Of a stretch of 64,000 nt of DNA, positions 5,170 to 28,743 are shown piece by piece. Location: the NCBI GenBank assembly GCA_950295325.1, contig OX485805.1, positions 54,150,758 through 54,214,757 on the forward strand, read 5' to 3'. A program made the position numbers and the translations under genes. A model generated the notes under the pieces. That model was not told where the DNA came from and made no database searches. It saw only the letters and a program-made list of their open reading frames with translations. The stretch is from Polytrichum commune. Taxonomy: Eukaryota > Streptophyta > Polytrichopsida > Polytrichales > Polytrichaceae. How positions within the stretch are numbered: position 1 is the stretch's first letter; every line of letters begins with the position of its first letter.

Positions 5170-5193
5170 CACTACTAGGAAGCAGGGTCCTTT
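5170..5193 (+). repeat. CACTA left terminal inverted repeat
   Basis: The block CACTACTAGGAAGCAGGG then TCCTTT matches the right terminus allowing small substitutions and an indel. The block CACTA(C/G)TAGGAA is followed by a G-run and GTCCT in all three terminus-like sites of the window. Confidence 0.75.
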
Positions 5194-6541
5194 AGCACAT
5201 GAAAAGCACAGTACACTGACAACCCGCATAGTGCTGCACAGATGTCGGAGACTGCGCAGGCGGTGCCAGCGACTGTGGACGCGGTGTCATCCTGGACCAA
5301 TCCTATTATTGGCAAAACAAGGTGTGTTAACATTGTTGTGAAATTTGCTGTCAAATTGTGTTCTAAGTGTGTTGTACGTGTGTTTGACAACCATAATTGA
5401 CTGAGCGCATTAATTACATGTGCATGTGACATCAATACGCGGTTAATAATTGTATCCCTGACAACATGGGGTGTTGTAATGGTCGTCGTATGTACATAGT
5501 ACATTTAGCGGTCGTAGTTAATACACGTATTGCCCTGCCTCGTTGTGCGCTGTTTTTTCATACAGCGTATTGCTATGTGTGAAATACAAATGATTTTTGT
5601 AAATGCAAAATTGCAATGCAACCTGTCTGCGAACTTCAAATACCATGCATTCCCAATGCCATGCACATTCCCAACCATTGCAGATTTTTGTCTGGTTTTT
5701 TAGTTTCTCTGCGTTGCGCACAGTATATACATAATACCAAAAAGTACAGCATGCATTAATGTTCATTTGGTTGCAAATGGGCTGCCATTCGTGCAAACAA
5801 CTTTGTCATTGCTAAATCCTACACCATTCATGCTTCCTATCCGTCCTCCTGCACGCCTTCTGCCATTGCAGTTGTCTTTCCATTCGCACGTACTACCTCC
5901 CTGCTATACAATTGGGCTAGCTGCAACCACATGCACCTCATTGAAGACGTGCTCATCTTCCACAAACATGTTTGCTTACGGCCATGAGGAAATCCTGGAA
6001 AATCTGGGCCTTCAAAAATCGTGCGCCCTGCACACGCCACATGGGTCTTCCTTGTGTTTGCAATGCACAATGATGCCAAAATTCATTGCGTCCCCTTCAG
6101 TATTCGAAAACTTGTTGCAGAAACGTCCGCTCTGCTTTTCTGCAGGTGGAATTCCGGCCTGCCTTCCCCGTCCGCACCGGCACATCCCCTGTTTTGCCAC
6201 ACTCCAACGACAATGCATACATCCTTGTCAATGTGCATCGATTGTCCAGCACCTGCAGCGACATGAATCCAGCAGCCCCCCTAGACCACCCCCCCCCCGA
6301 ATTTGTTGACGGACTTTCGTCCCCTGCTGCGCGCCCAACTTCACATGCTATGTGCGGTGTGTGCCGAGTGGCAGCACTGACGCGAACAACGACTGACTCC
6401 GCGCACGTGCATTCACCTCGCTCCCATGTGTGGTTCTGCAAAACTGGAACCCTGTGGCGGCTGTCGCAAGCATCCTGTATTGTCTTCCCTTTGCCCCTCC
6501 TGTCATAGGCCCGTGCTTCATTGTGGACATGATTTCGGCAA
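5194..6541. other. CACTA left subterminal region, no gene assigned
   Basis: This is the space between the left terminus and the 3' end of the minus-strand TNP1-like gene. It holds overlapping minor open frames on both strands but none with recognisable content. In CACTA elements this zone normally carries short repeated binding sites for the TNPA/TNP1 protein; I did not identify a clear repeated motif here. Confidence 0.35.
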
Positions 6542-9186
6542 TCATGCCTCAATTTCCTTCTCCACCAGGTACCGCGTTGACCACGTAACCCAGGTGTTGT
6601 TCGGTGCAGGTGGAGTTGCAAAGTGCTCTAGGTACTCGGGGCCTACATTCGGATCCGGGTACATGACCTCAACGTTTTTTTTGTGGACCTTTGTGACCTT
6701 CACCATTTGTTTCCCATCCTCGCACAATTCCATCAGTATGGTGCATCCGATGCCTCCCCCAATGTCCTGTAGTGCAGGCGCACTCCCCGCAATTCCTTCG
6801 GCCACAGGTCTCCTCCCATTTCCTGGATATAACACCCAACATTCCGCCCCGCATCGCACCAACTCCTGCGCACATTGCGAACATACAAAATTTCAGCACG
6901 AATTCAAGTGCTCATACCTCTCCATGTTCTTCCATGGAAACAAAACTCAAAAGCAATACACATGTGCCAGTGGGTCTGCTAGTCTCAGTGCTTGCCGTAG
7001 AGTGGTAGCGCGGATCCACTGCTGGTGGCCTCCTTACACGTGCGTTGCCCCGTCCTCTTCCCCTCATCTGGCCTACTGTGTTTTCAACACTGTTCTTCCC
7101 TGCTGCGGACTCTCCCCTCCCATGCATTGCGTGTGCCTCCTTCACCCTCCCTGGAGAGAAATTTAAATTAAGAGTTGCATGTTGTCGTCCTTCACTTGTC
7201 CCAATCTGCGGTCCTGCATGTGGCCTGTATTCACCAGAGCCCCTTCGTTCTCTCCTGGACGCCACCCACCCACTGTCCCCGTCCTCTGCGTCTGCTGCCA
7301 CTTGCCTCACAGTGCTTTCAAACCCCGCCCATAACGACACAGGTCCCTCCCGTGGTGCACCCTGTGTGCACTCGACTGACATGTGCATGTCTTGAGTCTC
7401 CTCGTCTTGAGTGTCCACCTCCTCCACATCAAGCGGTCCTCTTTGCTTGCTCGGTGGCGACCACATTGCAGGCGATGTGTTCCCCTCATTGTACCAATCG
7501 CACGTATCGCCTTCCTCTGCAGAGGTTGCAATGTTCACCTGCATGCCCTCGTCCATGTACGGCTCTTCTGTCTCCAGGATGGAGGTTACTGCTGCGTGCC
7601 CTCCAAGGACGGGGTTTGCATTCTCCTCCCGTGCATGTTTTTTTCCCCTATGGTCGGAGGTAGTCATACGTTCATTTCCATGTTCATCTCCACTGCCCTC
7701 CCCTCTCCATGTGCACCACGTCGTCCCCTCCAATGCCGCGTTCTGCATCACACCATCCGGGTCGGGTCCGCTTTTGCCCATCGTGCTAACATGTTCTGCT
7801 ATATTCTCCATGACCTCGTGCACGACCCCCAGGTCTTCCCTCACCCAGGACATGTCCCCTTGCAAGGTCGCGATCGCGTCGGTCAGCGACGCCAGCGTCT
7901 TCAATATGGCCTCCACTCCAATTTCCTTTTCAGCTGCGCCGCTGCTTATTGCAATCAACCTGTCTCGTGGGACATCGGTGGCGTCATCCATGTTCACTTC
8001 CACCACCCTCTCCCCCCCCGAGTCACCGGTCTCATACGAAGAGCACTCCCCGCAGTCGTCTGCTGCTGTTTTCGTGTGCGTGTCCGCTGCCTGCAATGGC
8101 TGTTGTGCAGTGGTATCCCACAAACATTCTTTAATTGCGCATACACACCCAGCAACGTTTCATGTGTTCCGTGCGTCATTATGCATGCTTCTGCATTATG
8201 CATCGCAGCACATCCACAATACACATCTGTATTGTCTTCTACTTGTTGGCATAGACATTTACATCGCACAAATCATGCCTGACACATTCTTCATAGTTTT
8301 CGCTTACCTCTTCCTCCATTCTGACAGCAAGAGCTGTTCGACCCGTGTTGCTGCTGTTGTGGACCAGAGACCGCCTGCCAGCCATTTGTGCTGATTCCTC
8401 CTTGCAGGCTTCTGTGGGCCACCACAGAATGAGCTCCTGCCATGCGTCCTCAGGACAGTTGTGGTGGCGTTTCGAATCGCCGTACCGGAGCCAATGTGAT
8501 TTCCAAACTGCCCTTGAACTGCGCAGATGGCCTGCAAGGTACTTTTCCACTCGTTTTGGATCAACCGGTGGATCGAACTTATACCGTGAGTTCAGTTCCT
8601 GGTGAATCACTCCCTTCTCGAATGTGGAATAGCCCTTCCATCCCTCCTTCTTGAACGGCATGAGTTTATATGCAAGTTCCTTTGCTGCAGCGTGCCATCG
8701 CGCCTTCAGATGCGTTTCATTTTCTGCGATAGTGATTATGGGAGCCCTCCCCCCCGCAACTGAGTCCTTCATCTCTTTCGCGAACACTGCGTTCGCCTGC
8801 TTGTTTGTGCTCCTTGTTGTGCTCCTTTTTGCAGCCGAATTGCTCTTCGCTGCCTCTGCGACGTCGTTGCTCACGCGGGGGGTTGCCTTTGGAGGGGTGC
8901 ATAGGTCCAGCACATCCACAAGGTTCTTCCCTCCCTCCGCGTCTGTTGTCACAAATTTGGCGCCCGCTCGTACGGCATAAGTGTAACCTTCAGGCAGGGC
9001 ATCCCCTTCTTTGAGCGCAATAACCTTTGCACGCACCTCCGTCCTGTTCCCCGTTTTATCATGGTCGTTGCTTAACGCAGCGGGTTCCTGCGGTGCCACT
9101 ACCGCTGCCGCTGGCCTGCGACTCCCCTCTGTCGGTGTGCACCTGCGGCTTCCTGCTCCGATACATGCCCTGCTCGTGCTTGGCAC
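6542..9186 (-). CDS. TNP1/TNPA-like CACTA accessory transposase (copy A)
   Basis: Three exons on the minus strand are supported. Exon A1 (9186-8308) is bounded by CAATGCAG acceptor and GTAAGCG donor and is phase 0 at both ends. Exon A2 starts at 8090 after CATTGCAG and ends near 6960 or 6918. Exon A3 (6865-6542) begins after TGCGCAG and ends at a stop. A1 carries a region like the Ptta/En-Spm plant transposase family (Transposase_24): WKSHWLRYG, CPEDAWQELILWW and ESAQMAGRRS. A2 has a likely coiled coil (EAILKTLASLTDAIATLQGD) and a long acidic, low-complexity linker. A3 holds a compact domain (CWVLYPG, DGKQ, YPDPN, WVTWSTRYL) resembling the TNP1 (Transposase_23) domain and homologous to copy B. 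The 5' exon(s) upstream of 9186 are not resolved. Its likely role is DNA-binding partner of TNP2. Confidence 0.65.
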
Positions 9187-9246
9187 CTGCATTGCGTGCA
9201 GCACCCACATGTGAGATCCAGACGCATTTGGCATGTCTCCCCCCAT

Positions 9247-12240
9247 TCTCGCATGTTCTCCGGAACTTGTATGTGGGGAGGCGATGCCACTGCTTTATTC
9301 CATTCCATTTCCATGCGCCGTGTACGTCCATCGACATCGACATAGTGCTGTGATTTACCTTGCCATTTCCGGAGCATTTGTCTCTGAGGCCTTCTACACC
9401 ATTGTCCTCCCAGCCACATCTGCCACTCTCTGCCGCAGCCGTCACTGGACACATATAGCCCATTCCTACATTGCAATGCACTACCGAAAAGTTCAAACCC
9501 ACCCAAATGAAATTATGCAGGGGGGGGGGGGAAAGCTTGCTTGTGAGGGTCTTGCGTTGCTTGTGTCGTCGTTCGTCGCTGCTGCTGCAGCGCGCATTGG
9601 TCTCTTGCCCTGCACATGTGTACTACATGTATCAGCGACCCTATCAGAAACCACAACATGAAAACCAAATATTTTGCAGTGGTATCTACTTCACTCACCT
9701 TTGTGTACGGGGATGCTGCAGTCGAGCACCCCATGTATGCATTCCTCTCCGTCGTAGCCTGGTGGCTGGTAGTTCCTGCCCCCATTGGCCCCTTGTCAAC
9801 TGTGTTCGCTCTCGCGGCCTGTACTCCTGGTGGTCTACTGGTATCCATCGTGGTTTGCCTTCTCCTCCCCCAATATCCAAGTCTCCCCAAATTCCACAGC
9901 GGCTACTTCCCCACCTCAAAATATGTCTGCACCTTCTTTGTTAGAATTTTGTCACTGCGTTTTACATTTGCATTGTGCCAGCTATGGCCCATTGACACAA
10001 CATCTGCCTCAGAGGCACAGATACATCTGTGACAGCGTGTTCAAACATGCGCAGAAAATGTTTCAATGCTCCCATGCACAACATATTCGGCAACCAAATG
10101 CCCTCTTCTGTGCGGACCCTCACATTTACATTCCAGTGCCCAACCCATACTGCACCGTAACTACAGAAGACCAGAAACAAATATGCACGATTGCATGGGG
10201 TTGGACTGCCCCCTGCGGACTGCACACAATGCACACCACATACAACACAACACCCTTGCACGGCCGCCATGAAGCTTTTGGCAACTGATGGCTGGCAAAA
10301 TGCATGTTTCTCGTACCTTTGCCGGTACGGGTGCCAAACACCGGCAGCAAACCACCGTTCAGTGTTGCTTCACTTCGGAATCACGTGTGCTTCATGGCAG
10401 AATTGGCAATTGGACGGTTATCGTCCATTCTTTGGTCGAAACGCTTGTGCACATTTTACCCTGTCTTCACAATACATGTCGCCGCCACACATGTCACGTT
10501 ATTGTGGCTGAATTTGTTTATAGGCCTCCGACACTCTACAAGATTTTATGCATGAAAGTATGCTTCCCTACATTGCAATCATATATCAACAAGGTTGTTT
10601 CCCCCAGCTATAATCACATGTTATGCCAAATCCGCCACACCCTTGCAGCATGCGCATGGCACATGCGTGCCGCCCAGTCCCAGCCGGGGGCCAACACATG
10701 CACATCCCATTCAGTGTGCTCTTCCATTGTTGTTGCCAACTGCTTGCCGTGTCGACTGCGACTTATGTGCACATACAAGCGCACCCGCACAATGTGGCCC
10801 TCCAAACTCCACGATTTGAATACATTCCAATTCCAATCTGGAAGGCTGTTCTGCGTGCCTGCAGCTGGGCGCCAACCACATCCAGCCAAATCCGTGCACA
10901 GATATAATACAATGACAAATCAAATGCACAGTTGCATCACCTATCCTTGTGGCAACATGCCCTCATAACCCCGTGCGTCCTCTCCAACCCCTCCAAACAG
11001 CTTCGACATGTGAACGCCCCGCTTCACTTCACATTTCCCGATTTCACGATCTCCTACACAACATCTCCGTCCATGCACAACGTTTTCTTTTCCCCTCCCA
11101 TGGTGTCTTGCCCTTGCCTCCTCCTCCTGTTTACACAAACACAAATATCATTAGGCACAAACATACAAGTACAGTCGTCATTTTGCAGCTTCCATGGCCG
11201 TCTCCGTTTATAACATTCACATCATCATTTGTATGTCCACTTAAACCCCCCACCGTTGGCCATATTCTTATAAACAAAACCTTGCCCTTCCTTGGTACCA
11301 CACAGTCCCAGTGCATAGCAGACACACAGACTTCAAGCAGGCAGGGTTCATGTGTGGTCGCAGACCACATCCCCCTCAGTTCCAAGATCTCGCCTGTGAA
11401 TCTTGGGTGTGGCGTGACAATGTGCGTCCCGCAGTACTATGTGCGGGACTGCTTCGATCCTGGTTGCGCAACACCTACTTGATCGCCGCGATTCTTGCTC
11501 CTCTGCTGCTTCGGCTAGCTCTTCACCACCCTTCTGTGTGTTGTTGTTCGTTCCACACCTTTCTCTATACTGCGCATGTGCCCACGCCTCTGTGTAGGGC
11601 AATGTTTACCAACAACAACTCCACCAACCACTGTGATAGTCCATTGGCGGACATGGTTGTCCACGCACCTCACAATCGCGCTGATAGTAGCTACCAGGCG
11701 TCATGCTTGCCAGCGCGATCTGTTGCTCGGAGCAGTCCATGCACTAAAACGATTCTGATGTGATAGTATTTGTGTTCTCCTTGCACACTTTCACATACAT
11801 CTGCCGCAATGCAAACCTCCTTGTGCGCTAGCAACGTTGCCTGCTGCAAGAGAGTTCTGTGCACCGCCGTTTTCTGCGCGGCTTGGCCTGAAGTGCCAGC
11901 AGCATGGGGTGCGCACCCCAATCCCAACTGCTAAACGTTGGTCGCCGTTTGGGACATGCCGTGCCATCTGGGCAGTTGGCAGCACATACGCCATGTTTAG
12001 CCCGTCTCGGCGCCTGGGCTGTAATCGCCCTTGATATCCAATATGGGCCCTCCACGATTGGCAATGCCACTTGGGTTCTGTGCACCACCAGAGTGGCGGC
12101 TCTGCAGAGTGTGTACAATGTGCACGCGTGTCCCGCCTGTCAAGTACGCACCATTAATATGCGTATAGATCCAGTAACTGAGGCTGCACAGTTCCTGCAC
12201 TCCTAGAAACATCGAATACCTAACCTCATCATCCTCAACA
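9247..12240. other. GC-rich CACTA interior without an assigned gene
   Basis: About 3 kb of GC-rich sequence contains many overlapping open frames on both strands, all under about 180 codons and none recognised. It should hold the 5' exon(s) and promoter of the minus-strand TNP1-like gene. Captured host sequence is possible. A 12-base G homopolymer occurs near 9521-9532. Confidence 0.35.
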
Positions 12241-13702
12241 AAAAAAAATTAGAAAAAACTACCACCCCATCCAACCCTGAAGATATATAGAGCCACATAT
12301 TGCAAAAGACCCCAATACATAGCTACGCTCTTACATAAGCAAACACTCAAAGTATTTAGTATATCACCAATCAGATGATGCATAAGATGCATGAGTTCTA
12401 CATACTGATGAATGATTTTTTTTCATTCAAGTGCCAATAAGCACATGCAACCTTTCTTTATTCTATCTTGTTTCAATTTGGCTACGTACAACAACAACCC
12501 CTGTAGGCGCAAACAAATCTTATATAGTGTGTCCACTACCTATTTGTGCTATGGAACAAAGAGAGTGTGTGTGTGTGTATGTGTTGAGGGGTGGGAGCAC
12601 ACTTGCTCAAAATTGCCATTTTCAAATTGCTTTTTTGGACCTATTTATGAGATTATTGGGCATGACATGCGCCCAATGTTGGAGAGTTCCATAAAAAAGT
12701 CATACCATGTTTCAACAATGCATGTTCATTATATGGGGCTCATACTATATTCTTCGACAATTCCTCCTGACTCGAATCTCTAATTCTCTTCGTTTGAATG
12801 TGAGTGATTCTGAATGAAACACGGATCTTTATCTCTACAATTCACACATGCTAGGAACTTGGAGGCATGTAGCTAGGATATTTGGAAATTGGCAATTGGG
12901 GGTGTGTAGGTGTTAGGTGCAAATGTTGCCGTGTGACCATATGAGCACCCCATTTATAGTAAGAGAACATGAAGTGTGTACTTGATGTATCTACAATATA
13001 ACATTGTTGAGTTTCATGGTTGTGTTACATTCAATATTTGGTTTATGACATGGGCCTCCGTCGTCTTGCTTCGTATGAAGAATCTTAAACGATATGAAGA
13101 GATTCGTGTTGGTATGAATAATATGAATAGTGCCAATATTGTCAGTATGGAGTGTGGCCGCATGAACAATGTATCCTGCACATACTGTTGGAATGTACAA
13201 TGATTCTTGCGTGCATGCCAGGAGTATAGCTGCACCCAAAATTCCAAAAGTCTGCATCAATATATGAATGATAAACATATAATAGTATTGTTTTGGGGGC
13301 CCGCATGTTCTGCTTGCCATATTTTGTATTCAATGTAACTAGCCCACATGGTTGAATGACGTTATCAAGTAATCATTTTTCCATTTCAGTAAATAACGCC
13401 CATCATAACTCTGCATGGAAACGTTGGCTGCACAAAACCTTTGTCTTGGATCATCGTCCAAAATGGACCTCTACACCGAAATCTAATGAACGAACTTTGA
13501 TTCTAAGGGCCCGATCGCACCAAGTGGTGCTGGGCCGGGACTACGCTGTAAAGCTTCCTGCCTGGAAGCTCCAGTCCGGGTACGGTGCTTACCCTGTGCG
13601 TCAGCAGGGTCCAAGACGGGGGGCCGCACCGGGCGGATATGCAACGGAGAGGCCCAAAAAATCATCCATCCCCATCCATCGCTACAGACGAGGCGATGGC
13701 TT

Positions 13703-13730
13703 CACTACTAGGAATGGGGGTCCTTTCCCA
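13703..13730 (+). repeat. Third CACTA-terminus-like site
   Basis: CACTACTAGGAATGGGGGTC then CTTTCCCACAC matches the outer termini at 5170 and 28743 about as well as they match each other. It is preceded by CTT, which does not match the ACT found outside 28743. No partner terminus for it was found. It could be the end of a second, nested or truncated CACTA element. Confidence 0.55.
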
Positions 13731-13984
13731 CACCAGAAGGACATGGTTTTGCCAAATGATATCAAGCACGACACTTGTCCTAGGTGGTCCAACCACTGTG
13801 CAGAAATGTTCAGACTATGTGTGCAATTTAGTATATATACAACAAAACGAGATTATGCAACAATACCGAGTGATGTGATTGGTGCGACCAATACCTAGCC
13901 GATGTATTGGTCACATTAGTCACTACACTATGAAATATTGCATAACCTTTTATCGCTCAATGGCTACACACATATTGTCACCAG

Positions 13985-14336
13985 GTGTAGCACTTGGGGC
14001 CCCAATTCCTACACTCGGGGCCCGAAGTGCTACAACTTGGGCCCGAGTTGAGACACTTCGGGGCCGCAAGTGAAGCACTTGGGGCCCCAATTCCTACACT
14101 CGGGGCCCGAGTTCAGACACTTCGGGGCCCCAGGTGTAGCACTCGGGGCCCCCATTCCTGCACGCGGGGCCCGAAGTGCTACAACTGGGGCCCGAGTTGA
14201 GACACTTGGGATCCCCAGGTGTAGCACTTGGGGCCCCAATTTCCACACTCGGGGCCCGAAGTGCTACAACCGGGGCCCGAGTTGAGACACTTCGGGGCCC
14301 CAGGTGTAGCACTTGGGGCCCCAATTCCTACACTCG
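13985..14336. repeat. GGGGCCCC minisatellite, 21-bp units in an 85-bp period
   Basis: About 350 bp is built from modules of about 21 bp. Each has a GGGGCCC(C) palindromic core and one of four alternating linkers (TGTAGCACTT, AATTCCTACACTC, GAAGTGCTACAAC, GAGTTGAGACACTT). The first module recurs at about 13991, 14076, 14140, 14225 and 14310. Spacing is therefore 85, 64, 85 and 85, with one module missing from the second period. Both strands read as heptad-like Gly-Pro repeats, which follows from the palindromic core and is probably not protein coding. Confidence 0.85.
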
Positions 14337-16720
14337 TCCACATTATATATATTGAATACAAAGTGATAACCTATAATTTATCCCAACACCTTCACAACAC
14401 CTTCACAACACCAAAAAATGGTTTGGCATGTACCGATTTTATAAAGCATATTGTTGTACTCTCTGACAATGAATGTCGAAGGCTTCTGTGGTCACTAGTT
14501 CAGTTGCCTCTATTTATATCAACCTCCCTCACATTCAGAATTCCAAATGAATCCAACAACAATCTTCCCATTTCGCAAACATACACTCTTACATTTTGAA
14601 ATGGTCCCCATTCTTCTCTTATATCTCAAGTTCGCATACAACTTACTCATAACTCTTAACACAATGAACTGCATTTACCACGAATAAACGAACATTTACA
14701 ATCTCTCACACACGATAAAATATAGTTAGCCATTACCATGGATGTGTAACTTGTATTCACAATAACATTATGCTTGATCCAAAATCTCAAATCGCACAAT
14801 CACTGCAACAATTGCTCATTTATTTATAGACAATAATTGAGCTCTAGCCCTCACACAAAGCACGTGTTGAGGGAAAACATATTATGAGTTTTAGAATGCA
14901 CTGAAAAGGTTCTAAGAATGTTGTGTATTTCTCTCCTCCATTTGCCTGCTCGCTGTCGGGGGGGGGGGGCAAGCTGATAGATATAATTGCCTGCACTCAA
15001 CCTGCACTGAACTTGCACATGAGATAGATAGATACATTCAATTTGCCAAACATGAACATATCCATAATGTTCCATAATATTATTTTATTGTATTGGAAAG
15101 CAAAGCATTCACATGATAGACATGATACAAACCAACACAACAACATAAATATTAGGGCATTCTAACCGTTTGTCAATGTAAAGTTAAATTAAAACTTAAT
15201 TTAACCTTAAAATTTTAAAAAATAAGTCACAAAAACCAATGTTATAAGAGCTTGTAAAATTGAAAACTCTTTGATGTGGCAACTACCCCAAAAATGATCA
15301 CAAACTTAGGCCTCGGGGTGTGGGAGTTGCGCAAGATTATATGTTGTTGTGATTAATGTGTCTATTACCCTGCCTGGGTATTAGTCATATTAGTAACATA
15401 ATTCCACAATCATCTAAAATATTATTTTATTGTCTATTAAATTGCATGCCCACCATTCATATGATATAGTTATTTTGATTGTAATTCAGTATGAAATATT
15501 TATTGTGCATATGTGTCCTTAAAATAGAATATGTTTTCCTCCATCATATTTCACCATCATGTGTAGTGTGGAGTCTTTTGCGACCCCTCAACAAAATGCT
15601 ATTTCAATGCATTTATATTCAAAAACATGTACATTATGTATAGTACCATATAGTAGTTGATGCATTTCATGCGCATTGCATGTGTTTACACATAGAGTCT
15701 GCATTTTGGGTACATGTGTTGCAAAAGATTATGGAATTGGTCGAATAAAGCCGTGCCTCTCTTTTATTATACAAAGAAACATGGAAACGTCAATGCGTAA
15801 AATATGGAAGGGTACTTAGGTGGGTTACAAAGTTTGTTTTGATGCCATAATTAACTTGAACGACCCGCATTGGTCCAGTGTGCACATATGGGAGCATTGT
15901 TACTTCACAATAACCACCAACTAATAGGGGATATATTTTTTTATGCACCGAAAAGATATCGTAAGTGTCAATTCCCATCCTTCAAATTCCAGAACTTATT
16001 GTCTAACTTTAGTTCACATACTTCTCAATGCCCTTATGCTCAACCCAATCTTTGTGAATAACAACATCTTAAGCATGCTATCCATCCATAAATCATTTGA
16101 ATTTTTTTGTATATTGAGTTCATATTGTGCTATTATTTGCGGGAAGGCTTGGATATTTCTCTTTTTCAGTTCAACCCACCACATATTGTGGAAGTACAGA
16201 AAGTATTCTAAAAACCATTATGACACATGTTTGTACTTGCTAGAATCGAATTGCAACCCATAAGGTGGAGCTCAAGATTTGAGATGCTATATTTAAACTA
16301 GCAATTCTCGGTGTTTTGAGGTTAGTTAACATTAGTTCGAACCCAACTTGAATAACAAAACGTAAACATTTTTCAAGATATTTGGTGCCACTTATTATTC
16401 ACAACTATGGAATACTATAACTTTATATTCCAAGATTGTTTTTTTTGTATGGAGTTGATTGTTTTAGAGTAAAATATAGCATAATATATATTAAGAATAT
16501 GTATGATGCTTACGTTTAAAAAAGGATAGGAGATGATGGCAAATATAGAACCCATTTGTGTGCCAAAGCGAACAATATTTGTTTGTGAATATTTGGGGCC
16601 TATATTGATTAAATTCATTGTATTTATTTGTGTGCCAATTTTGCATTTGATTTCACATTCCCGTAAGACTAAAACTTTCCAGGAAATTGCGACTTTTGCA
16701 TCCATTCACAAATTTTGCAG

Positions 16721-18300
16721 CCTCCAAAGGCAGGCGGTCGATGGGCAATCATTGGGAGCTTCCATGGCATTATGGAGGTCGTTAAATCCCATCAATTCCC
16801 ATAATTTCATGTTCGTCGCACATCAACTGATGTGATGTCTTGGTGGAGTGTTCTCATTACAATTAACGTCGACAACCTCAAGGCTTGTGCCTGCACCTGC
16901 CCTCACACTGCCATCGCGAATATGTCTGCAGCACTTGTTCGCACAGTTCCGGATCTCGGCGCATACACGAGCTGCATCCCATGCAGGTTCGAGTTCCACT
17001 TTACAATTGCGAAGCATTTAGACTGAAGGTCCCACAGCCTCGAACCTCCACCCATTTCTTGGTTTTTTGCTTTTCCCCGCACTGATTCTCATGAGTTCCC
17101 CACCACCTGCATGATGTTGTCGCCTGAATCCTATTCTGCTGTTGCGCTTGTGTGTTCGTTTGGTTTTTTTTTTCTCCCATCGGTTCATGCACGTTTGCCA
17201 GAGCGTCCTGGCTCACATCGGAGTTGCGGTTTCAGTCGTCGCCTCCAGCTGGACCCTTCAATGTTTGTCGTTTGCCTTACTGGTTTACCAACCACCTTCT
17301 TCTCATGAAGGCACTGTGTATCTCCCTTCTCCTGAACTGACAAGCTAACCCGCCCCCTCACGCATCTCGCATTTGCTGCACCCCAGTTTTGCGATACAGT
17401 TGTGAGCCGGTCGTCTAGGTTTTCGCAGGTGGGATTCTTAGGTGGTTCTGATAATCGCCATGATGCTGCTAGTTCGTGATTGCGAGAAGCGGCGAGGGGG
17501 ATGACTGAGGCGCAGGAGATGCTAGAGTAGTACTTCAGTGTTTTCACTCCAGTGTTGGACGTCGGTGTTTGAGCTTTTCTTTATTTTCTGTTCTTCTGCA
17601 TAGATTCCTACAACAACATGAAATTAAGATTATTGGAGCAGATTTTTAAGTTACTTGTGTCCGTGGCATTGCTTGGCCAACTAGCTCTGTTCATGCATGG
17701 GTCAAGTAGCAGATTCAAGATTAAACAGTCTGGATGCGTGAATCCCAGAACTAACAATTGAATATGAAGTTATGTTTTGTTTGCTATTCACCAAACGTGC
17801 GGCAGCTCTGAACATGATGCATGCATAGTCCTTCTGGAAGTATGTGATGCAGATGCAATACAGAAGTCAATAAATTTGGGGTGGGTGGTTTGCAGGTGAC
17901 TACTTCGTGTGTTTGGTGCCAAACAACATGGCAACACCCGACACGCGTGTCGTCCGAGAACCTGCCCGCCATTGTCATGGGGAGCCTGTGTCCGCACATA
18001 TATGGCAGGGTGTGGGGGAGGGGCCATTCCGCGCGCACGGGCGCAAGAAACGTAAAGGCAGAAGTCCGCGCGTCCAACAGTCTCCGGACAAACACAGATT
18101 GGGGAAACTCCCTCGAATGCCCGAGGCGACTGTCCCCCACCCTTATACTTCATCCCTACATAGCATTTGGTTTTTTGCAATACATTGTTTGTCATCAGTG
18201 TGTGTGTGCAAGTTGTATTTTGTGAAGGCCGACCATGCCATATTGCCTACCATTCACATTGTACGTGACATTATAGTTTTATATCCTTGTGCAGAGGGAC
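16721..18300. other. GC-rich CACTA interior upstream of TNP1-like copy B
   Basis: Composition returns to that of the CACTA interior. Short open frames occur on both strands. On the plus strand, an ATG at 17928 opens a basic stretch (GRKKRKGRSP) that could be an upstream exon of copy B, but I could not connect it by a phase-consistent splice. No Ptta-like domain is visible here, unlike in copy A. Confidence 0.3.
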
Positions 18301-20143
18301 ATGAATGCTGCACATGCACGGAACTCTCAGCGTGAGCCTCACTACGGCTATGGCTATGTCCCAAATCCATATCTACACCCATACCACGATTACGCGGCAC
18401 TGACGTAATCTGCATATGGACCACCACAACCAACACTGCCTCCATATCCGTATGGCGGATATGGAGCACCACACCATAAAGGACGAAGACGCGGGTTGCA
18501 GGAAACGTCGAGCTCCCCCCAGAGTAGCAGCAGCAAGTCTGCACATTTAAACGAGTTGGAGACAGAGTGCGCGAATGCAGCTGATGTCAAAGGAGCTGCA
18601 GATGTCTTGCAGACATCCAACCCTGTAACAGCGGGGACTGCAACTGCAACGAAGGACAGCGTCGCTTGCCAACAGGAGTCGCGGCAGGGTGCAACATCCA
18701 AGGGGGCTCCGGATGTGGTATGCACTCGTCTTTGATGATTACCTGTGTAGGTCGCATAAATTGAAAGCAAAACCAATCATGCGCAATTGTGAATGTAATT
18801 GGCGTGTCATTTTCCACAACATGGCCATTTCGCATGTAACAACATTAGCACAGTGCAAGCCCAAGCTGCGAGTGATGTTGTAATGACGCCTTACATATGC
18901 GTATGCAGCACGAAGACGACGAGCAACCGCTCTCCCAAGTCTTCCGCTTTGCGACTCCGCAAGGGCATTGCAATACTTGTGGACAACCAACTAAGGCCAG
19001 CTGGCAGTCAGAGGCAGAGAAGATGCTCAGGATTCTCGACAGGAGGGTCGCAATAGTTGAGGATAGACTGGGGAGTGTAGTGGATGGGATAGCCAAAATT
19101 ATTGCGGAATTGGGTGCACGAAGTCATGGATGTGGAAAGGACGTCGAAGCGAGGACATCCGCACACATACGCAACATGTCACACGCACCTGTGCATGATG
19201 CCACAACAACCCCCTCGCAGCAGCAGCAAGGAGAGAGCCCAAAACAGGCGGGAGGCATGGATGCAGAGAAGCCGTCTTCTCCACGTCCTGCACGTCCTGC
19301 AAAACAAAGTAATGCGGACGATGTCGATGATCGCGGAGCCATTTTGGACCACCCAATTGTTGTGGGCGACGACGCGTCGAGCTCTGGTGGGAACAAGGGG
19401 TGCAACATGGAGGGGAGCCCGAGCAAAGGGGCAGTCATCCCAAAGCGCGTGCATGCCAATCCGCGGCAGCGCGTCGTCCCTTTTGCAGGCAGCCTGAATG
19501 GGCCGCAGCCTCGCGTGGCACCTGCTGTTGCACGCGAAGGCACTGGTTTCTACGTTGCCCCGCACGCGCCTATGCAGAAGGACCCCTCTGGGTATGCTGG
19601 CGGCACAGACTCTGGACGAACGCTGGAACCCGCTTTCGTGCCTCCAGTGTTGGAGCCAAAGAGATCCGGAGTGAGCATTTTTCCCAACCTAGTCAATATT
19701 GTGTTTGGTATTGCAATTTGCATGTGCACTGTTGGCTGCTTTGTATGTATTGTTCCAAGTTTCACCGGCACGCATCAAATGTTTAGCACTGACTGGTGTT
19801 TTCTCGCACACAGGTTCCACTGAGGCACAACACCAAGTGTTGGGTCTTGCACCCAGCATTCAACAAGGAGGTCGTGGGAGTGGCCAAAGCGGGTGTGCAC
19901 AACAAGTCCCGCAGCCACCAGAAGCATTTGGTATCCGCATGCAGAGACGGGGAGCAGTACATATTGTTCAAAAAAATCTTCCGCCACGACACTCCACTCC
20001 TCTACCCCGATGATCCTTGCATTGGCCAAAACAAAATGTGCGATGCCGTTGTATGGAATTCTGGGAGGCCCGAGAAGTGGGTGCGATGGGCGTGCAAGTA
20101 CTTGCACGAAGTAACAGAGGAGGGCGCAACGGACTGGGTATAG
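18301..20143 (+). pseudogene. TNP1/TNPA-like CACTA accessory transposase (copy B)
   Basis: There are three exons. B1 (18301-18717) encodes a Pro/Tyr-rich stretch (YGYGYVPNPYLHPY, PPYPYGGYG) and is interrupted in frame by TAA at 18406-18408. B2 (18909-19670) follows a phase-0 intron; it has a likely coiled coil (EKMLRILDRRVAIVEDRL) and a long disordered linker. B3 (19814-20143) follows a second phase-0 intron (GTGAGC...CACACAG) and carries the domain CWVLHP, DGEQ, YPDDP, WVRWACKYL, homologous to exon A3 of copy A and resembling the TNP1 (Transposase_23) domain. The single TAA could derive from CAA by one C-to-T change. Apart from that codon the 503-codon frame is open. Copy B lacks the Ptta/En-Spm region seen in copy A. 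Confidence 0.6.
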
Positions 20144-22502
20144 GTGTTTTGGTTTTTGTAGTGCAAGCCCCTTGACGTAGTACTGTAGCATGTATAGTTC
20201 AAGTATAGTGCCAAAATGGAGATTCGATATGTTGGATGTTCAAGTGTTATGGTCGTACAAATGTGGGAGTAAAAAAAAAAAACATTTCGGCATAAGAAAA
20301 ATGTCTTCAAATATTGACTACGTTGTACAAATGCATTTCATGTTCAAGAGGTTGGAGTATACGAACATGGCAGTTCACAAAAATTGAAGAATGGGAGATG
20401 CTTACCTGCTTATTTACCTTTATTTGGATGTATTGAAGAGGTGCAACGTTATGAAACAAATTATAGTCATGAAAGAAGTTCCACACATTGGCATAAGCAA
20501 TTTAGTATATTATATCAATATATATATTGGGAAAAACAATAAAATGGTGCGTTTGGGGGGCATAGTCGCCAATATGGGCAACTGTGACCCTTTCGTGGAG
20601 CAGACCGGTGCGATTTTCGTCTTCGCAGACATTTGCAATTCAATTTTCATGGTCCTGGGCACAGTGCAGTCGGTGAAGACTGCAGAAGGCATTATTTTAT
20701 TATGATTTTATTTGCTTCAGGCCCCCAATGTGCTTGGAATTTTGAGTTTCTTGGCCAACCAAACAATGGCATGTGGGAAAGTGTGTTTGCCACCATCATG
20801 CGCCGGCATTGCCCAACAAACTCGATATTGTATTTCATGTGAGGAGGCTGCACTGAATTTAAGGAAAACAAGATGGTCGTCGGGGAGGCTTCAGTGCCCT
20901 CATATACAAGAAAAAGCTTGTGGTCTGCCACAAACACCTTCATCGATGGTGTATTAGTGGTGTCATTGCAATGCGCTTATATTAACATGTCATACATGAC
21001 ACAATGTAAATGATATGTGTACCCCTCATGGTGTTCGTAAAAAAATATTATTGTCACCATACCGTGCAAACTGTATTTGACACGTCCAGTAACTGGACCA
21101 TTTTCCAGGAACCCGTCCACTGGAAAGGGTTTTTTTTTCACATGTCCGTGGACGTGCTGGGAGCCTTCCAAATAATCACCAGTGCAGTGCAGCCTACCTC
21201 TGCCCACAGCCAGGGGAAGGGCAGTCTGTCCGATACTGTGGTGGCAGGTGTAGGTGCAGAGATGGCAGATCGGGGCAGCTGACGTGGGTGCACCCAGACA
21301 GTGGTTGTGAGGCATGAACGGCCTCCCCATCGCAACGACGGCTGCTAAGGTGCCGCCATCAATCTTCTCAACCCCGTCCACCATGTTGCCGGAGGTCCAA
21401 AGCTCCGTGCACGCGACACAATAGCATTCATGCGCCAGAAACACAGGATTGTGTGTGCACCATCTTCTTGTGCAGCAGTTCCCACTAGGGGATAGTGGTC
21501 ACATGGCCGTGGCTTTTGTTTCATGCGCGTTGGTGGTTTCTGCGTCAAGGGTTTTCTGTTTTGTTGCCATTGAAGCTCCCTGTCACCAATGATGCTTTGC
21601 AGGTGCAGAGGGGATTGTATATCGGGAGCCAGGTGGATGTAGAACATAGTGGGCGTGGTGCCAGGAAGCAACACACTGTGCATCGCAGCACTGATCCCAC
21701 CATCTAGGCGGTTGTAGGATATAATACCCTTGCACATACGATTTCCTCGCACCTGCACCAGTGTGTGCATCGCACAACCCACGAAGAGGGTGACACATAC
21801 ACGAGCGTGGCGTGTGGTGCACGTGCACAACAACATGTGTCGTGTAGCAGAAGTGCTTCGATTGGGCGTGGGGAGGACGGATGTGCATGGTTAGGAAGAC
21901 GAGGTCGACGGGCGAAGACGTGCGCCAAATTCTGCGTTACTCTGTGACAGTGTGGAATGTTAGGGTTTGGGTGGCTGTTGTGCAAGGTGGGCGCCAACAT
22001 TTTTGCCGCTGGCACATAAGAAATAGGGGAGGGACAGGCGTTGGGGAACCAGATGCGAACGTTCGCTGGCACAGCACCTGTGCCAACAGCAAATGTGGAG
22101 GCGTTGTCTGTATGCAAGCACAAAGCACAACAGATCGGGATATGGGGAAAGAATACCGCTATGCACAGGGATGGGGAAAGTGAAGGCGATGCTGCTGGTG
22201 GGAAAAAAACCGAAAAGTGGTGCGCTGTGAATGTGCATGGAAAGCATGACTATGGCGTGGGCAGTGCACAAAGTTGCCCGTCCTACGACTCGCAGTGGAG
22301 GGGGATAGTGGGGACTTAGCAACGCGAATATTTTGAATCAAACGGCTTGAGGTGAAGTGCCACTGCAATCGCGGGGGCGCAGGCATCGAAGTTCGAAAAA
22401 AAGAATAGAAAGGACACAAGAAACTCTGGTTTTCAATGTGAGCAGTGGCAGGTATATTCCCAGAAGATCCGACACTTACTTGTACCGTGCTAGTAACGCG
22501 AC
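20144..22502. other. CACTA interior between TNP1-like copy B and TNP2
   Basis: About 2.4 kb lies between two plus-strand genes. It starts AT-rich (20150-20700) and becomes GC-rich. It presumably includes the copy B 3' UTR and the TNP2 promoter. Small open frames are present on both strands but none is recognised. Confidence 0.3.
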
Positions 22503-25500
22503 ATGGACCGCGGCAGAGGGGCGCGGGTGCACCCCACAACATATGCACAAAGGATAGAGCTCAGGGATGCAAAAATGTGGCGCCGCGAATCCGCACGACA
22601 TGGAGGTTCAATGCAGACGAGGAGCAGGTGCCCATGCACGCTCTGTATGTTCGGCAGACCATTGTTGCGCGCAACACAAGCCCGACATCTACGAGACTAT
22701 GGGAGACATCCACAGAGGAGGCTCCAGGAGCAGGTAAACACGGACACATAAACCACAATGTGGAATTCCGTGGTGCTGGTATGTTTTGCTTTGACATGAG
22801 CAGAATGATGCCCAAACATAATACATTCCAATTTGGTACAGGCAGACTGTAGCATCCATTCAGAAATGTTGCGTGAATGTTTGTGTCAAACTCATGCATG
22901 CAGTTGCGCAGTAATAAAAATGGACGAAAAGTACAGGTACATATGTACCATGTTGACATGAGGCCTGTATGTGTAGTAAAAAACTATTGGAGTTGCTGGA
23001 ATTCGAGTTTGTAAGGATTTAAGAAGTCCCTCGGTGGATCATCTTTAAACATTTATCCTAGAAGAAGTGTGGCCTTCTTTGAAGACATATATATATGTCT
23101 ATTACCACAGACGTGGTTGAACATGATGGAGTATGATCATTGAGCAAAAAAATAGTTATTTTGGGAGTGCGAATGCTTGCATAAGTACATAGAACAGAGT
23201 ATTTGGAGACCGAAATATTTCGGCACGCACCGCATGCATGGATGCATGTGAATTGCGGGGATGCAGGTGCCGATGTGATGGCCTGCGAACTTCTAGTGTA
23301 TGTGTGCAGAAATATATAACCAGGTGGTGTTTGAGGTAGGGGGAAGAGAGGGACAGCTCCGACGAAGAGTGGGAGACCGCATATGCTGCACTCGACCCGC
23401 TCTCACAACTTGGATGGGGGAACCGTCGTGGCGTACAACGTGGGGGTGCTGTTGAGGTGGTGCGAGATGTGTTTGTGGCGGCAGATTTAGTGCACGAAGA
23501 CGCCATGTCGGAAATGGGAGGGGTCGGGAGCAATGCCAGCGAGGGGGCGCCAAGTGCGGGCGACTGTGCGGTGGAGTCCACAGGCACAGATACAGATGCA
23601 TGCATGGACCAGCAGGGCAGCGTGCTTGGCAGCGATGAAGGTTAGCAATGGGTGCATGGCATGTTGTGCGATTGCATTTTGAAATCCATGGTTGCTTGTA
23701 CTATGCTCACGACTGACTGGCGGCATTGGAATGCAAGCACCATACTGAACACTGGGACAGCAGGGTGAAACATGTATTGATGCAAAAGGTTGCGCATGAT
23801 GACCGCAGACGAGGAGGTGTGGAGCAACTTTAGTGGAGAGAGCAACAACGACAGTGGTGGCAGCGAATCCGAGGACGAGGTGCAATTGGAGGGAGACTCC
23901 GAGATGCATGCACAAAGTGTCTGCCCAGGTATCCAGAATGCTGCAGCACTGAACGAAGAGGCAACAACCCCTCTGTATTGTGGATCCAGCGTATCCAGGC
24001 TAGACAGCACACTCATGTTCATGAATGTCTGCCGCACGCACAAAGTGACAAATGCGTGCATTAGCGAATTGCTGAACCTGCTATCGAAGGTGATTCTCCC
24101 AACACCAAACTCTCTTCCTAGCAGCGAAGGGATGGCCTCCACAATGCTTAGCAGACTCGGACTGAGATACGATTGTATCGACGCTTGCAGGAACGGGTGT
24201 GTGCTGTATAGACGCGAGTATGCTGAATTGGACACATGTCCCGTGTGTCAAGCCGCCAGGTATAGGAATGCAGGATTGTCGCGGGTACCTGTGAAGGTTT
24301 TGAGGCATTTTCCACTTGGTCCAAGGCTGAGGAGAATGTTCTCCACACCTCAACTTGCGACATTAATGACATGGCATGCAGAGAACGTGTCGACGGACGG
24401 GAGGATGCGGGGGCCTTATGATTCGCCGCAATGGTCGCATGTGAGAGAGAAACACGCCGAGTTTGAAGCGGACAGCAGGAACATACATCTCGGATTGTGT
24501 GCAGACGGCATAAATCCGCACTCGCAGAAAAGGTCCACGCATTCCGTCTGTCCGGTGATGTTGCTGAATTACAACATTCCCCCATGGCTGACCATAAAGA
24601 AATTTTTCATAATGCTCAGCCTTTTGATACCGGGCCCCGAAGCGGTCACAGGCGACCGCATGGATATTTTTCTTGAGCCATTGATAGAGGAGCTGAGAGA
24701 GCTATGGATACAGGGCACAGTATGCAATGACGCAGGGCGATGGCGAGGGGAGGCAAGGTTCACACTGCGGGCAATATTGCTGTGGTGCGTACATGACTTC
24801 CCTGCGTACGCCATGATGGCGGGGACATCGAACAAGGGATATTGTGCGTGTCCTGTCTGCGGACCAAACACACCCGCGAGGCACTCACAACATTTGTCGA
24901 AGGTTGTGTATGGAGGCAGCCACCGCAGGTGGTTGCCAGCAGACCACCCCTACAGGTTTGACACACACGTGTTCAAAACGCAGGAGCTGCAGGAAGCGCC
25001 TGCACGCATGGATGCGAACAAACACATACGATGGGCTTTTATGCGCGCAGAGTATGCGCGCTTTGGAGGGAGGCTTGCTGCACAGGGAGACCCAATGCTC
25101 TGCAGCGGCGTGAAGCGATTACCCTCTTTGTTTACTCTGCCGTACTGGAAGGTAATGGCATGAAAAGTACAACCAATGGCTGCACTTGTGCTTCATTTCT
25201 ATATTGCATGCAAGAGGGCGAAGCAACACGCAGGGAAGAGGAAATGCACAATGCAGCAATCATTGACACTGGGAGCTACGGCAGACAGTGCAGACAGTGG
25301 GAGCAGAAGTGAGGAGGAGCAACAAAAAGGAGAGGGCATGCTTGGGTGGATGGAATGGCAGGGGTTACGTAGACGGTGTGCACCAAACATGGCCTAACAA
25401 CACACTGGGAAGCACGCTGCAGACACCACCTGACCATGTTTATGTGCAAAACGTGCATTGTATTGGCGATGCACTGGAAAATAATGCAGACCATGAATTG

Positions 25501-27251
25501 GGGTGTGCAGGGTTTGCCCACCAGGCATGTGCTCGATGTAATGCACGTGGAGAAAAATATTGCGGAGTCGGTGATGAAATTCTTGTTTGGGGAAAAAGAC
25601 ACCCCAGAACCGCGGAGGGACTTGCAGGCAATGGGAATGAGGCGTGAGTTGTGGCTGAGACCGGGGAGGAACAACCTGACATTTACAAAACCTCAGGCAC
25701 CGTATGTGTTGACGGAGGCAGAAAAAAAAATCTTCGTAGAAGAGGTAAGTGCTATTCGAACGCCCAAAGGGTACGGGAGCTCATTTGGGAAACATCTATC
25801 GAAATCCAGGTTTATGGGTCTAAAGTCCCATGACTATCATTGCCTAATCCAGCAAATAATACCTGCAGTCAGCAGAACTCTGCTGCAGCCACTTCAGAGG
25901 ACTACTTTGATACGGCTGGGAAAGAGCCTGAATCGAATATGTGCAAGGGTTGTAGAGAGGGCAAACATCCCAGCACTAAGACTTTATGTCACAGAAACGC
26001 TGTGCTATTTAGAGTTGTGTTTTCCACCCTCATTTTTCGACATTATGGAACACAGTCTCGTGCATTTGGTTGACGACCTTGAGATGTGTGGGCCGGTGGG
26101 AGGGAGGTGGATGTATCCATGTGAAAGGTACCTGGGGACACTCAAATCGTATGTTCGCAACAAGGCTCATCCAGAGGCATCAATTGCGAATGGGTACGCA
26201 GCAGATGAGGCACTAGGTTTTTGCACGGAGTACTTGAATTTGCAGGAGCACACGAAAAGGCACGTGTGGGAGTCGGAGGAGGAGATGTCTTCGAAGGCGT
26301 CCGTTGTGGAGGGGCGGGGGCATGTGGTGAAGTTTTCAGTGACAGAGCTGAGAAGAGCACACGACCACGTAATCATGCACCACGGCAGCACAGAAGAAAT
26401 GCGAAGGTGAGGAACGCGCACACACAAAATGCATAACTGCAAAGTGGTAGATAGATGAGAGCTGAAATACATAAATGACATGCGTTATGCTTCTGGTCGC
26501 ACAGGGAGTACAGAGAGCAGGCCGAGGAGACACGCGCTACGGTTGCGTTCGCTACCTGGCTGTGGGCAAAGTTGGAAGGCCTGAATGCAGGGGACAGAGG
26601 GTGGGGGGAGGAGCTGAGGGCACTGGCTTCCGGCCCTTCCAGAAAGGCGTGCACTTTCAGGAGCATGACATCATTTGGTTCGCACTATAGGGTACAGGCA
26701 GATGAGGATGGTGTGCAACACGTGACTTTCGACTCGGGAGTTGCTGTGCTTGCCGCACGTGCACGTGGACAGCATCCCACACACAACAACGAAGAGGTGC
26801 AACTGGCAAGAGTGGGGATATTGAAGGACATTGTGGTGCTCAATTATGGGCACATGAGCATAGTATTGATGGATGTGTCATGGGTGGCGGAAGACACCGA
26901 ATCGAGGCCGCGGTTGCGTCGAGACGAGCACGGGTTTTGGCTGGCCAACCTGGCCGCCAGACCTCGCGACCGAACATCACCCTACTTGCTACCTCCATTG
27001 GCATCACAGGTACAGACGCCGAATTGCTGAATGTTTTGAACCGCTGGGGTGCAGGTTGTTCGGCCACGAGGCCTCTGGCTGGACACTGACACGTGCCTCA
27101 ACATTCGCAGGTGTTCTTTGCGGACGACAAGTCCATGCGAGGGTGGTCTGTTGTGTTGAAAACGGAGGCTCGAGGACGAAGAATAAGCTGCACAGACATG
27201 GAGCACGCTCTGGGGCAGGAGGAGTCTTCTGGGGACCGGGCCGTGTTGTAG
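22503..27251 (+). CDS. TNP2-type CACTA transposase, six exons, apparently intact
   Basis: This is the catalytic DDE transposase of a CACTA element, acting in the nucleus on element ends. Exons: 22503-22733, 23340-23640, 23809-25151, 25511-26406, 26505-27009 and 27111-27251. All introns are GT-AG, phases agree, and the total of 3417 nt gives 1138 residues without internal stops. Exon 1 holds the end of a transposase-associated region (CPCTLC, ATQARHLRDYG). Exon 2 is acidic. Exon 3 is the Transposase_21 core: CPVC, SRVPVKVLRHFPL, DSPQWSHV, LGLCADGINPH (D410), YNIPPWL, LIPGPEAVTGDRMDIFLEPL and CVHDFPAY (D507). Exon 4 gives DVMHVEKN (E639) and a DUF4218-like domain with HSLVHLVDDL and RWMYPCERYL (near residues 806-835). 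Exons 5-6 form a DUF4216-like tail (LKDIVVLNYGHMS, DEHGFWLANL, VFFADD, GWSVVLKTE). The start ATG is the first in frame in exon 1; an upstream exon cannot be excluded. Confidence 0.85.
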
Positions 27252-28719
27252 GAAATGGAGGAACATGTGTTTACCATTGCAGAACACAACGCATGCGAAG
27301 GCTGCCGCAGTTGAAACAAGGGGGGAGCAGATTGAATGGAGGAGGGGGAATCGTGCGGACGGGCGGAACAGGAAGGGCCAGAATGGGGAGGCGATGAGCA
27401 AGCAGCGGAGGCGGGGGGGTGCGCAACGCACACGGAACACAGACATGCCGATCAACGGAGCAGGACGGGGAACCCGGCGCACCCACACACTCTCACAGAG
27501 ACGCAGGGGGGGACCGAAGAATGCGTCGTGTGGGGGAGTTCCGGGAACAAATGCGGAGCAACTTAAAGAGCAGCAAAATAGAATGCAACAACACTGCACA
27601 GACATTGGAAGACTAACAGCAGGGAAGGGAGAAATTTGTTGCAGCAAGTATTGGAATCGTGTTGCACGCAGCACAGGGAAAGAAGAGGCATATTGTTCGA
27701 GGCAGGAGTGTAATGTTGTGTTCACAATCAATCCAGCAGAGAGGAAAGTGGAAGCACACATGCATGCAGACCGAGCGTAACATACAATGATGGAGCACTT
27801 GCACGAGGCATGCCAGCAACGATTTGTTGCAAAAGCGAACGTGGGCAGGAGGAGACCATTTCTGGCGCATTGCTCGATCGAATGTGGTGGACGCACACGC
27901 AGGCACTCTTGCACTCGCCCCACTAGAGGACATGGATGCATACATAAAGCACATAACTGCAGTTTCGAATTGGTTTGTGGGGTTCTATAAATTGCCGAAT
28001 GGAGGAGAGCTGGGACCGAGGCAGCAAACCGGGAGGACTCTTCGGCAGGGGGGATATATAGGAGGGGGAACAATATATATGTTCCAAACAAAAATAGACA
28101 CATAGGCAATGACATTGGATAGACCAAAAATTGTAAATTTAAATGACGGTGGAAGACAGCAAAATATGCACTATTTCCAATAAAATATGCCCATTCATAT
28201 TCTTGTATTGCATGTTTTGCAGAGCGATCCCACATGGAAATTGCCCATCATCAGAGTACAACCACAGTACATGAATACTTTGTGGAGGCACTAATATTAA
28301 TTAAAAACGTGCCACCAAATACAGGCTCAATTGTCAAACATGACCGAATACATTGAAACAAAAATGTAGGTATACCAAATACGCATTGTGAAATACAGCA
28401 AAATTAAAGGACGACCAAATTGAAACCAGAAGCCAATGAAACGCAAACGCCAGGTGGCTTTATGTATGTGGTCGTCAAATCATAAATGCAGCGGGTGGGA
28501 GTCTGTGCCAGATTTCGGAGTGTGGGCCCTAGCAATGGATGGCCCGTTTTTTTTTGGCAACACCTACAATAGGCCATCGTGGACAAGCCTTAGACAGGTA
28601 AAAAAATTTATTGCAGTCCTGCTGTGGAGTACCTGCCCTCCAAAAAATCATGTCCGCAATTTGCTGCCCCTGTCCACATCTCCCACACAGAGGGTTGCCT
28701 CTGTCAGAGCCCTCTGTCA
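27252..28719. other. CACTA right subterminal region
   Basis: Just after the TNP2 stop (TAG, 27249-27251) the same frame stays open for about 17 codons, so the true end may be slightly further if that TAG is a CAG mutation. A 171-codon Arg/Gln-rich frame (27265-27780) and a 93-codon frame (27824-28105) are present on the plus strand but unrecognised. The last 200 bp contains repeated CTGYCC and CTCTGTC-type motifs that might serve as subterminal binding sites. Confidence 0.35.
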
Positions 28720-28743
28720 AAGAGGACCCCTTTCCTACTAGTG
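28720..28743 (-). repeat. CACTA right terminal inverted repeat
   Basis: Read on the minus strand it begins CACTAGTAGGAAAGGGGTCC, matching the left end. It is followed outward by ACT (28744-28746), equal to the trinucleotide before the left end. Confidence 0.75.

What the first reader, a model, noticed from the sequence alone, without database searches (positions are those of the whole stretch)
5170..28743. A 23.6-kb CACTA transposon proven by its disrupted LINE target
CACTA-type termini at 5170 and 28743 are flanked by the same trinucleotide, ACT. The minus-strand LINE frame that stops at 28744 continues at 5169: excising the block plus one ACT rejoins the coding frame without a shift (VDR then V-VIYDN). 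That argues for one insertion event despite the length and the internal composition changes. CACTA elements are often 5-15 kb, so this is an unusually large copy.
Basis: partly seen in the sequence, partly recalled or inferred. Interest (0 to 1): 0.85.

Follow-up and report, generated by a model that had tools for sequence, protein, structure and literature searches.

The report
Large CACTA transposon inside a LINE
A 23.6-kb cut-and-paste DNA transposon of the plant CACTA kind sits inside an old LINE fragment, and a second full-length copy elsewhere in the same genome shows that the whole block is one mobile unit; large, but not unheard of for its kind.

Summary
Window 5170-28743 (23,574 bp) has CACTA-type terminal inverted repeats and ACT on both sides. 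The decisive test is a second copy, G000:C1:60698634-60723127 (24,494 bp): collinear from terminus to terminus, 98.05% identical over 23,529 aligned sites, homology ending at both termini, and with its own duplication, GTT. So 5170 and 28743 are the ends of one element. The right arm carries a tnp2 transposase gene, the left arm an antisense accessory gene; parts of both show past purifying selection. The rejoined LINE flanks match other genomic copies across the junction in 30 of 46 rows. The size is less unusual than claimed: a 20.5-kb soybean CACTA is in print (PMC2613891), and a relative in this genome spans 22,950 bp. Two further pairs of ends with matching duplications lie 92.7 and 121.3 kb apart; the first holds nested retroelements and satellite, the second is unresolved. 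Verdict: real, correctly read, a new member of a known kind.

The parts
5167..5169 (.). target-site duplication ACT, left copy
5170..5191 (+). left terminal inverted repeat, CACTACTAGGAAGCAGGGTCCT
   Evidence: same at G000:C1:60698634
6514..9120 (-). left-arm accessory gene region, read towards the left end: ORFs 8242-9294 (weak Transposase_24 match), 6915-8159, and a stretch at 6514-6820 with codon-phase signal
   Evidence: Pfam E 0.014 and 0.0071, below cut-off; codon phase against relatives; dN/dS 0.25-0.29 for 8242-9120, but only 0.50-0.57 for 6915-8159
13503..13982 (.). older repeat inside the element, with a second CACTA-like left terminus at 13703; present in both full-length copies and found again at C2 and C5
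13981..14336 (.). GGGGCCCC-rich tandem array (periods 21/43/64/85/149 bp); length differs between the two copies
15061..15466 (.). piece of a dispersed repeat family, elsewhere in short arrays with a period of about 348 bp
23781..25160 (+). tnp2 transposase ORF (Transposase_21)
   Evidence: Pfam PF02992 E 3.1e-65; relatives over 23925-25160
25480..26407 (+). second part of the transposase gene, DUF4218 domain
   Evidence: Pfam PF13960 E 5.3e-34 in the ORF 25373-26407; dN/dS 0.14 against the C7 relative
26479..27027 (+). third conserved part, probably of the transposase gene
   Evidence: dN/dS 0.22 against the C7 relative; no Pfam family
28723..28743 (-). right terminal inverted repeat (reads CACTAGTAGGAAAGGGGTCCT inward)
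   Evidence: same end at G000:C1:60723127
28744..28746 (.). target-site duplication ACT, right copy
4959..5169 (-). LINE fragment, 3' side of the insertion; many match rows begin at query 290-318, i.e. window 4959-4987
28747..29396 (-). LINE fragment, 5' side of the insertion (only this length was tested)

Best explanation
This is one full-length CACTA (En/Spm) DNA transposon of 23,574 bp that inserted into a degenerate LINE fragment and duplicated ACT. Shown: paired termini, the duplication, a tnp2 transposase gene, a second collinear full-length copy at another place with another duplication, and LINE relatives without the insert. Inferred: it moved by cut-and-paste with tnp2 transposase, helped by the accessory protein of the left arm. 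The interior repeats (13503-14336, 15061-15466) were already inside before at least one of the two copies landed, so a unit of about 23-24 kb was able to transpose. Also inferred, from few changes and from open-frame lengths: both copies have since drifted about neutrally and differ in which frames are broken, so neither looks self-sufficient today.
For: Termini and duplication. Second copy C1:60698634-60723127: 458 differences in 23,529 aligned sites (98.05% identity), 24 gaps with the large ones at about 14.07-15.06 kb, homology ending at both termini with 600 bp of flank on each side, duplication GTT. Transposase_21 E 3.1e-65 and DUF4218 E 5.3e-34. Selection between lineages: dN/dS 0.14 (DUF4218 part), 0.22 (third part), 0.25-0.29 (8242-9120), against 0.62 for an antisense control ORF; codon phase. 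Empty sites: 30 of 46 match rows cross the junction by at least 20 nt on both sides. LINE identity: a 1,415-aa homologous frame with Exo_endo_phos (E 1.6e-12) and RVT_1 (E 1.7e-35). Relatives with paired ends and equal duplications: 3.4 kb (ACT), 3.8 kb (TCA), 5.4 kb (GAG), 22,950 bp (TGA).
Against: The accessory gene is only weakly like Transposase_24: below the curated cut-off, profile comparison E 0.24, and a PF03004 search of the genome gave 8 matches, none of them in this element. ORF 6915-8159 (dN/dS 0.50-0.57) is hardly better than the antisense control (0.62). The Transposase_21 ORF itself was compared only with the close C1 copy, not with a diverged one. Subterminal repeats are poor: within 300 nt of each end the longest word found twice is 9 nt. 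Three right-flank LINE pieces score no LINE domain, and the long LINE homologue is only 30% identical to the query peptide. A second CACTA-like left terminus lies inside at 13703.
Confidence: 0.96

Rival explanations
1. Two neighbouring or nested CACTA elements, so that 5170 and 28743 belong to different insertions.
For: An internal CACTA-like left terminus at 13703 and changes of base composition inside.
Against: A second copy with the same interior, the same two ends and a different duplication; the motif scan of the window found no internal right terminus.
Confidence: 0.02
2. A segmental duplication, not transposition, made the second copy.
For: The copies are collinear and 98% identical.
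Against: Homology stops at both termini although 600 bp of flank was available on each side of the C1 copy; the duplications differ, ACT and GTT.
Confidence: 0.02
3. A smaller CACTA element that grew by nested insertions after landing in the LINE and never moved at this size.
For: The interior holds older repeats.
Against: Both copies, on different contigs, share those repeats at the same places.
Confidence: 0.02

Closest known systems
Tgmt* of soybean, 20.5-kb CACTA (PMC2613891; passages seen)
   Same: Very large CACTA element with imperfect CACTA inverted repeats, a 3-bp duplication and a tnp2 transposase.
   Different: There tnp2 and TNP1 domains are in one transcribed gene; here the putative accessory gene is on the opposite strand in the left arm. 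Tgmt* sits in a gene intron, this one in a LINE.
Candystripe1 of sorghum (about 23 kb: recalled; only named in the passages of PMC2613891)
   Same: Similar size, same superfamily (size recalled).
   Different: No sequence comparison was made.
Jozin CACTA elements of Chenopodium (PMC8978399; abstract, outline, section 13 and passages seen)
   Same: Transposase_21 with DUF4218; Transposase_24 in ORF2 of some; a satellite array inside one 16,523-bp element.
   Different: Some carry Peptidase_C48, which no ORF given to Pfam here matched. The lengths of the other Jozin elements were not seen.
Chondrus crispus En/Spm families of 16-20 kb (cited in PMC6431247; passages seen)
   Same: Enlarged En/Spm elements.
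   Different: Those have 4-5 ORFs and live in a red alga.

Membership tests
CACTA (En/Spm) DNA transposons | terminal inverted repeats beginning CACTA and ending TAGTG | tested here: met
CACTA (En/Spm) DNA transposons | 3-bp target-site duplication | tested here: met
   ACT in the window, GTT at the C1 copy; other relatives
CACTA (En/Spm) DNA transposons | tnp2-type transposase (Transposase_21) | tested here: met
   PF02992 E 3.1e-65, PF13960 E 5.3e-34
CACTA (En/Spm) DNA transposons | second, accessory protein gene (ORF2/TnpA, in some Transposase_24) | tested here: inconclusive
   8242-9120 shows past selection, but Transposase_24 E 0.0071-0.014 is below cut-off, the profile comparison gives E 0.24, and the PF03004 genome search does not list this place
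CACTA (En/Spm) DNA transposons | subterminal arrays of short direct and inverted repeats | tested here: inconclusive
   within 300 nt of each end only a few 7-9-nt words repeat, three 7-nt words three times
CACTA (En/Spm) DNA transposons | shown to excise and reinsert | not testable with these tools
   only past movement is visible, from two copies with different duplications
LINE (target) | endonuclease and reverse transcriptase in the family | tested here: met
   1,415-aa homologous frame: Exo_endo_phos and RVT_1 over cut-off, zf-RVT below it; remote homology to the target (30%, E 1.1e-7); three right-flank pieces score no LINE domain

The most novel reading that the evidence does not exclude
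In this genome CACTA machinery mobilises very large units. Besides two 23.6-24.5-kb copies, at least one of which must have moved at about that size, pairs of CACTA ends with identical 3-bp duplications lie 92,709 bp (C7, AAG) and 121,273 bp (C1, TGA) apart. The 121-kb span includes a mTERF-type gene and could be a macrotransposon carrying host DNA.
Probability: 0.08. Interest if true: 0.6.

Novelty: new member of a known kind. Interest (0 to 1): 0.27.

Why it matters
It is a clean case in which a CACTA element above 23 kb is shown, by a second collinear copy with a different duplication, to have moved as a whole with older repeats inside. It raises the question of how large a unit this transposase can carry, which the two wider pairs of ends in this genome could test.

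Tried and rejected
Two separate elements, a segmental duplication, and growth only after insertion were considered and rejected (see rival explanations). Host-gene capture inside the element: none of the 15 ORF references inside it that were given to Pfam matched an ordinary host gene above cut-off (7, 7, 1); not every frame was scanned, so capture is not excluded. Rfam over the whole window at gathering threshold: 0 matches. ARAGORN: 0 genes.

The 92.7-kb pair on C7 was fetched whole. It holds three long terminal repeats, each with a 5-bp duplication read by eye, a reverse-transcriptase frame, two DUF7869 frames and a phosphatase-like frame, and two arrays of about 10.6 kb of a 295-bp repeat. 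Its arms match the window element in 5 pieces. Much of its length is nested, so I do not claim that it moved at that size. Of the 121.3-kb pair on C1 I read five pieces of 10 kb and about 0.6 kb at each end. None of the five pieces matches the window element at E 1e-15. They hold a repeat 97% like the C7 long terminal repeats, a frame with DUF7869 and integrase-core domains, and a mTERF-type ORF. It may be a transposon, or two ends that flank ordinary chromosome with equal duplications by chance (1 in 64); it is left open.

Literature: seven answered searches. I make no claim that the divergent gene arrangement is absent from print.

Full report
Observation. The ends match over 22 and 21 nt with small gaps. 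The element is 23,574 bp long. Removing it and one ACT gives DVDR-VVIYDN on the minus strand. The frame is only locally open: the LINE fragment is degenerate, with stops and frame changes nearby.

One element or two. The window is G000:C3:54150758-54214757 in a genome of 407.8 Mb and 64 contigs. A 231-bp left-end query gives 23 matches and a 260-bp right-end query 11 (the tool calls such counts lower bounds). Among the listed matches only one other place has both ends at 98-99%: C1:60698634-60723127. Fetched in full, it aligns to the window element from terminus to terminus: 458 of 23,529 aligned sites differ (98.05% identity). The differences are spread along the length, 12 to 44 per full kilobase row (13 and 8 in the two partial end rows), with the peak at the tandem arrays near 14 kb, where the large length differences also lie. 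Homology ends at both termini although 600 bp of flank was available on each side, and the C1 duplication is GTT. A 38-base left-end pattern with up to 3 mismatches finds these 2 places only, and 0 for the reversed control. So 5170 and 28743 are the ends of one mobile unit.

Target. The joined flanks (500 + 650 bp) give 46 match rows, 2 of them the window's own flanks. Of the 46, 30 cross the junction with at least 20 nt on each side; the remaining 14 do not meet that limit. Some rows are pieces of one locus, and only the best 40 of 104 candidates were scored. The best relative without the insert is C4:5954653-5955495 (79%). A peptide query across the junction finds relatives in one frame. One has a 1,415-aa open frame with Exo_endo_phos (E 1.6e-12), RVT_1 (E 1.7e-35) and zf-RVT (E 0.00032, below cut-off). 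So 'LINE' is right by family, although that long member is remote (30%, E 1.1e-7) and three pieces of the right flank score no LINE domain.

Anatomy. Right arm, plus strand: Transposase_21 in 23781-25160 (E 3.1e-65), DUF4218 in 25373-26407 (E 5.3e-34), and a third conserved part, 26479-27027. Left arm, minus strand: ORF 8242-9294 with a sub-threshold Transposase_24 match (E 0.014; 0.0071 for 8242-9120), ORF 6915-8159, and a stretch at 6514-6820 with codon-phase signal. The two genes point outward, away from each other. A PF03004 search of the genome gave 8 matches, none here, and a profile comparison with six of those gave E 0.24, so the name of the left gene stays open. Against diverged relatives dN/dS is 0.14 (DUF4218 part), 0.22 (third part) and 0.25-0.29 (8242-9120); ORF 6915-8159 is weak at 0.50-0.57, close to the antisense control's 0.62. 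The Transposase_21 ORF was compared only with the close C1 copy there. Between the two 98% copies the ratios run from 0.37 to 3.1 on few changes, and the copies differ in which frames are open. I read this as selection on the lineages that move and drift after landing; introns could explain part of the frame differences.

Interior repeats. 13503-13982 is an older repeat found again at C2:63029351-63029750 and C5:37490617-37491011; it contains a second CACTA-like left terminus at 13703 and is followed by a GGGGCCCC-rich tandem array. 15061-15466 belongs to a dispersed family with a period of about 348 bp. Both full-length copies contain these, so they were inside before at least one of the two landed. 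A unit of 23-24 kb was therefore movable; this is inferred from the comparison, no movement was observed.

Family. Relatives with paired ends and equal duplications: C1:62527571-62524170 (3.4 kb, ACT), C7:37483226-37479431 (3.8 kb, TCA), C2:14540255-14545684 (5.4 kb, GAG), and C1:65723628-65746577 (22,950 bp, TGA; the right end was picked from two motif matches in the 4 kb fetched, the other having no equal duplication). For C3:37891645, C5:23215464, C2:25408181, C5:39616280, C7:22519019, C4:20465082 and C1:69834086 a second end or an equal duplication was not established. Further matches were not examined. A short relative at C2:24259867-24260610 has an altered left end. Two more pairs have equal duplications but are 92,709 and 121,273 bp long; see Tried and rejected and the section on the most novel reading.

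Comparison with print. PMC2613891 (passages) describes a 20.5-kb CACTA element in soybean. PMC6431247 (passages) mentions 16-20-kb En/Spm families in Chondrus. PMC8978399 (abstract, outline, section 13, passages) describes Transposase_24 in ORF2 and a satellite array in a 16,523-bp element. PMC4158355 (passages) gives the two-ORF structure. The roughly 23-kb size of Candystripe1 is recalled. The element is a large but ordinary member of a known superfamily, and the finding's main claim is right.

Noticed in passing
G000:C7:19586804-19679512: CACTA ends with the same AAG duplication 92,709 bp apart; inside are long terminal repeats, a reverse-transcriptase frame, two arrays (about 10.6 kb each) of a 295-bp repeat, DUF7869 frames and a phosphatase-like frame.
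   Followed up: partly
G000:C1:68767908-68889180: CACTA ends with the same TGA duplication 121,273 bp apart; the 50 kb sampled holds a mTERF-type ORF (E 4.5e-58), a frame with DUF7869 and integrase-core domains, and a repeat like the C7 long terminal repeats; no sampled piece matches the window element.
   Followed up: partly
window 56125-56349: 225-bp miniature CACTA-like element with long inverted ends (CACTAGAAGAAATC...) and TGT on both sides (read).
   Followed up: no
window 13703: An extra CACTA-like left terminus inside the element, within a repeat that also occurs at C2 and C5; the motif scan saw no matching internal right end.
   Followed up: partly
window 15061-15466: Piece of a dispersed repeat with a period of about 348 bp, found as short arrays on contigs C1 to C7.
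   Followed up: no
window 32321-32548: DDE_1 transposase fragment on the minus strand (E 7.6e-13), about 3 kb beyond the tested LINE flank.
   Followed up: no
window 40574-41110: hAT C-terminal dimerisation domain on the minus strand (E 4.8e-19).
   Followed up: no
window 41001-46000: Strong GC skew (0.37-0.55) over a stretch with a reverse-transcriptase fragment at 44092-44550 and a weak RNase H match at 41479-42045, both on the minus strand: perhaps one retroelement.
   Followed up: no
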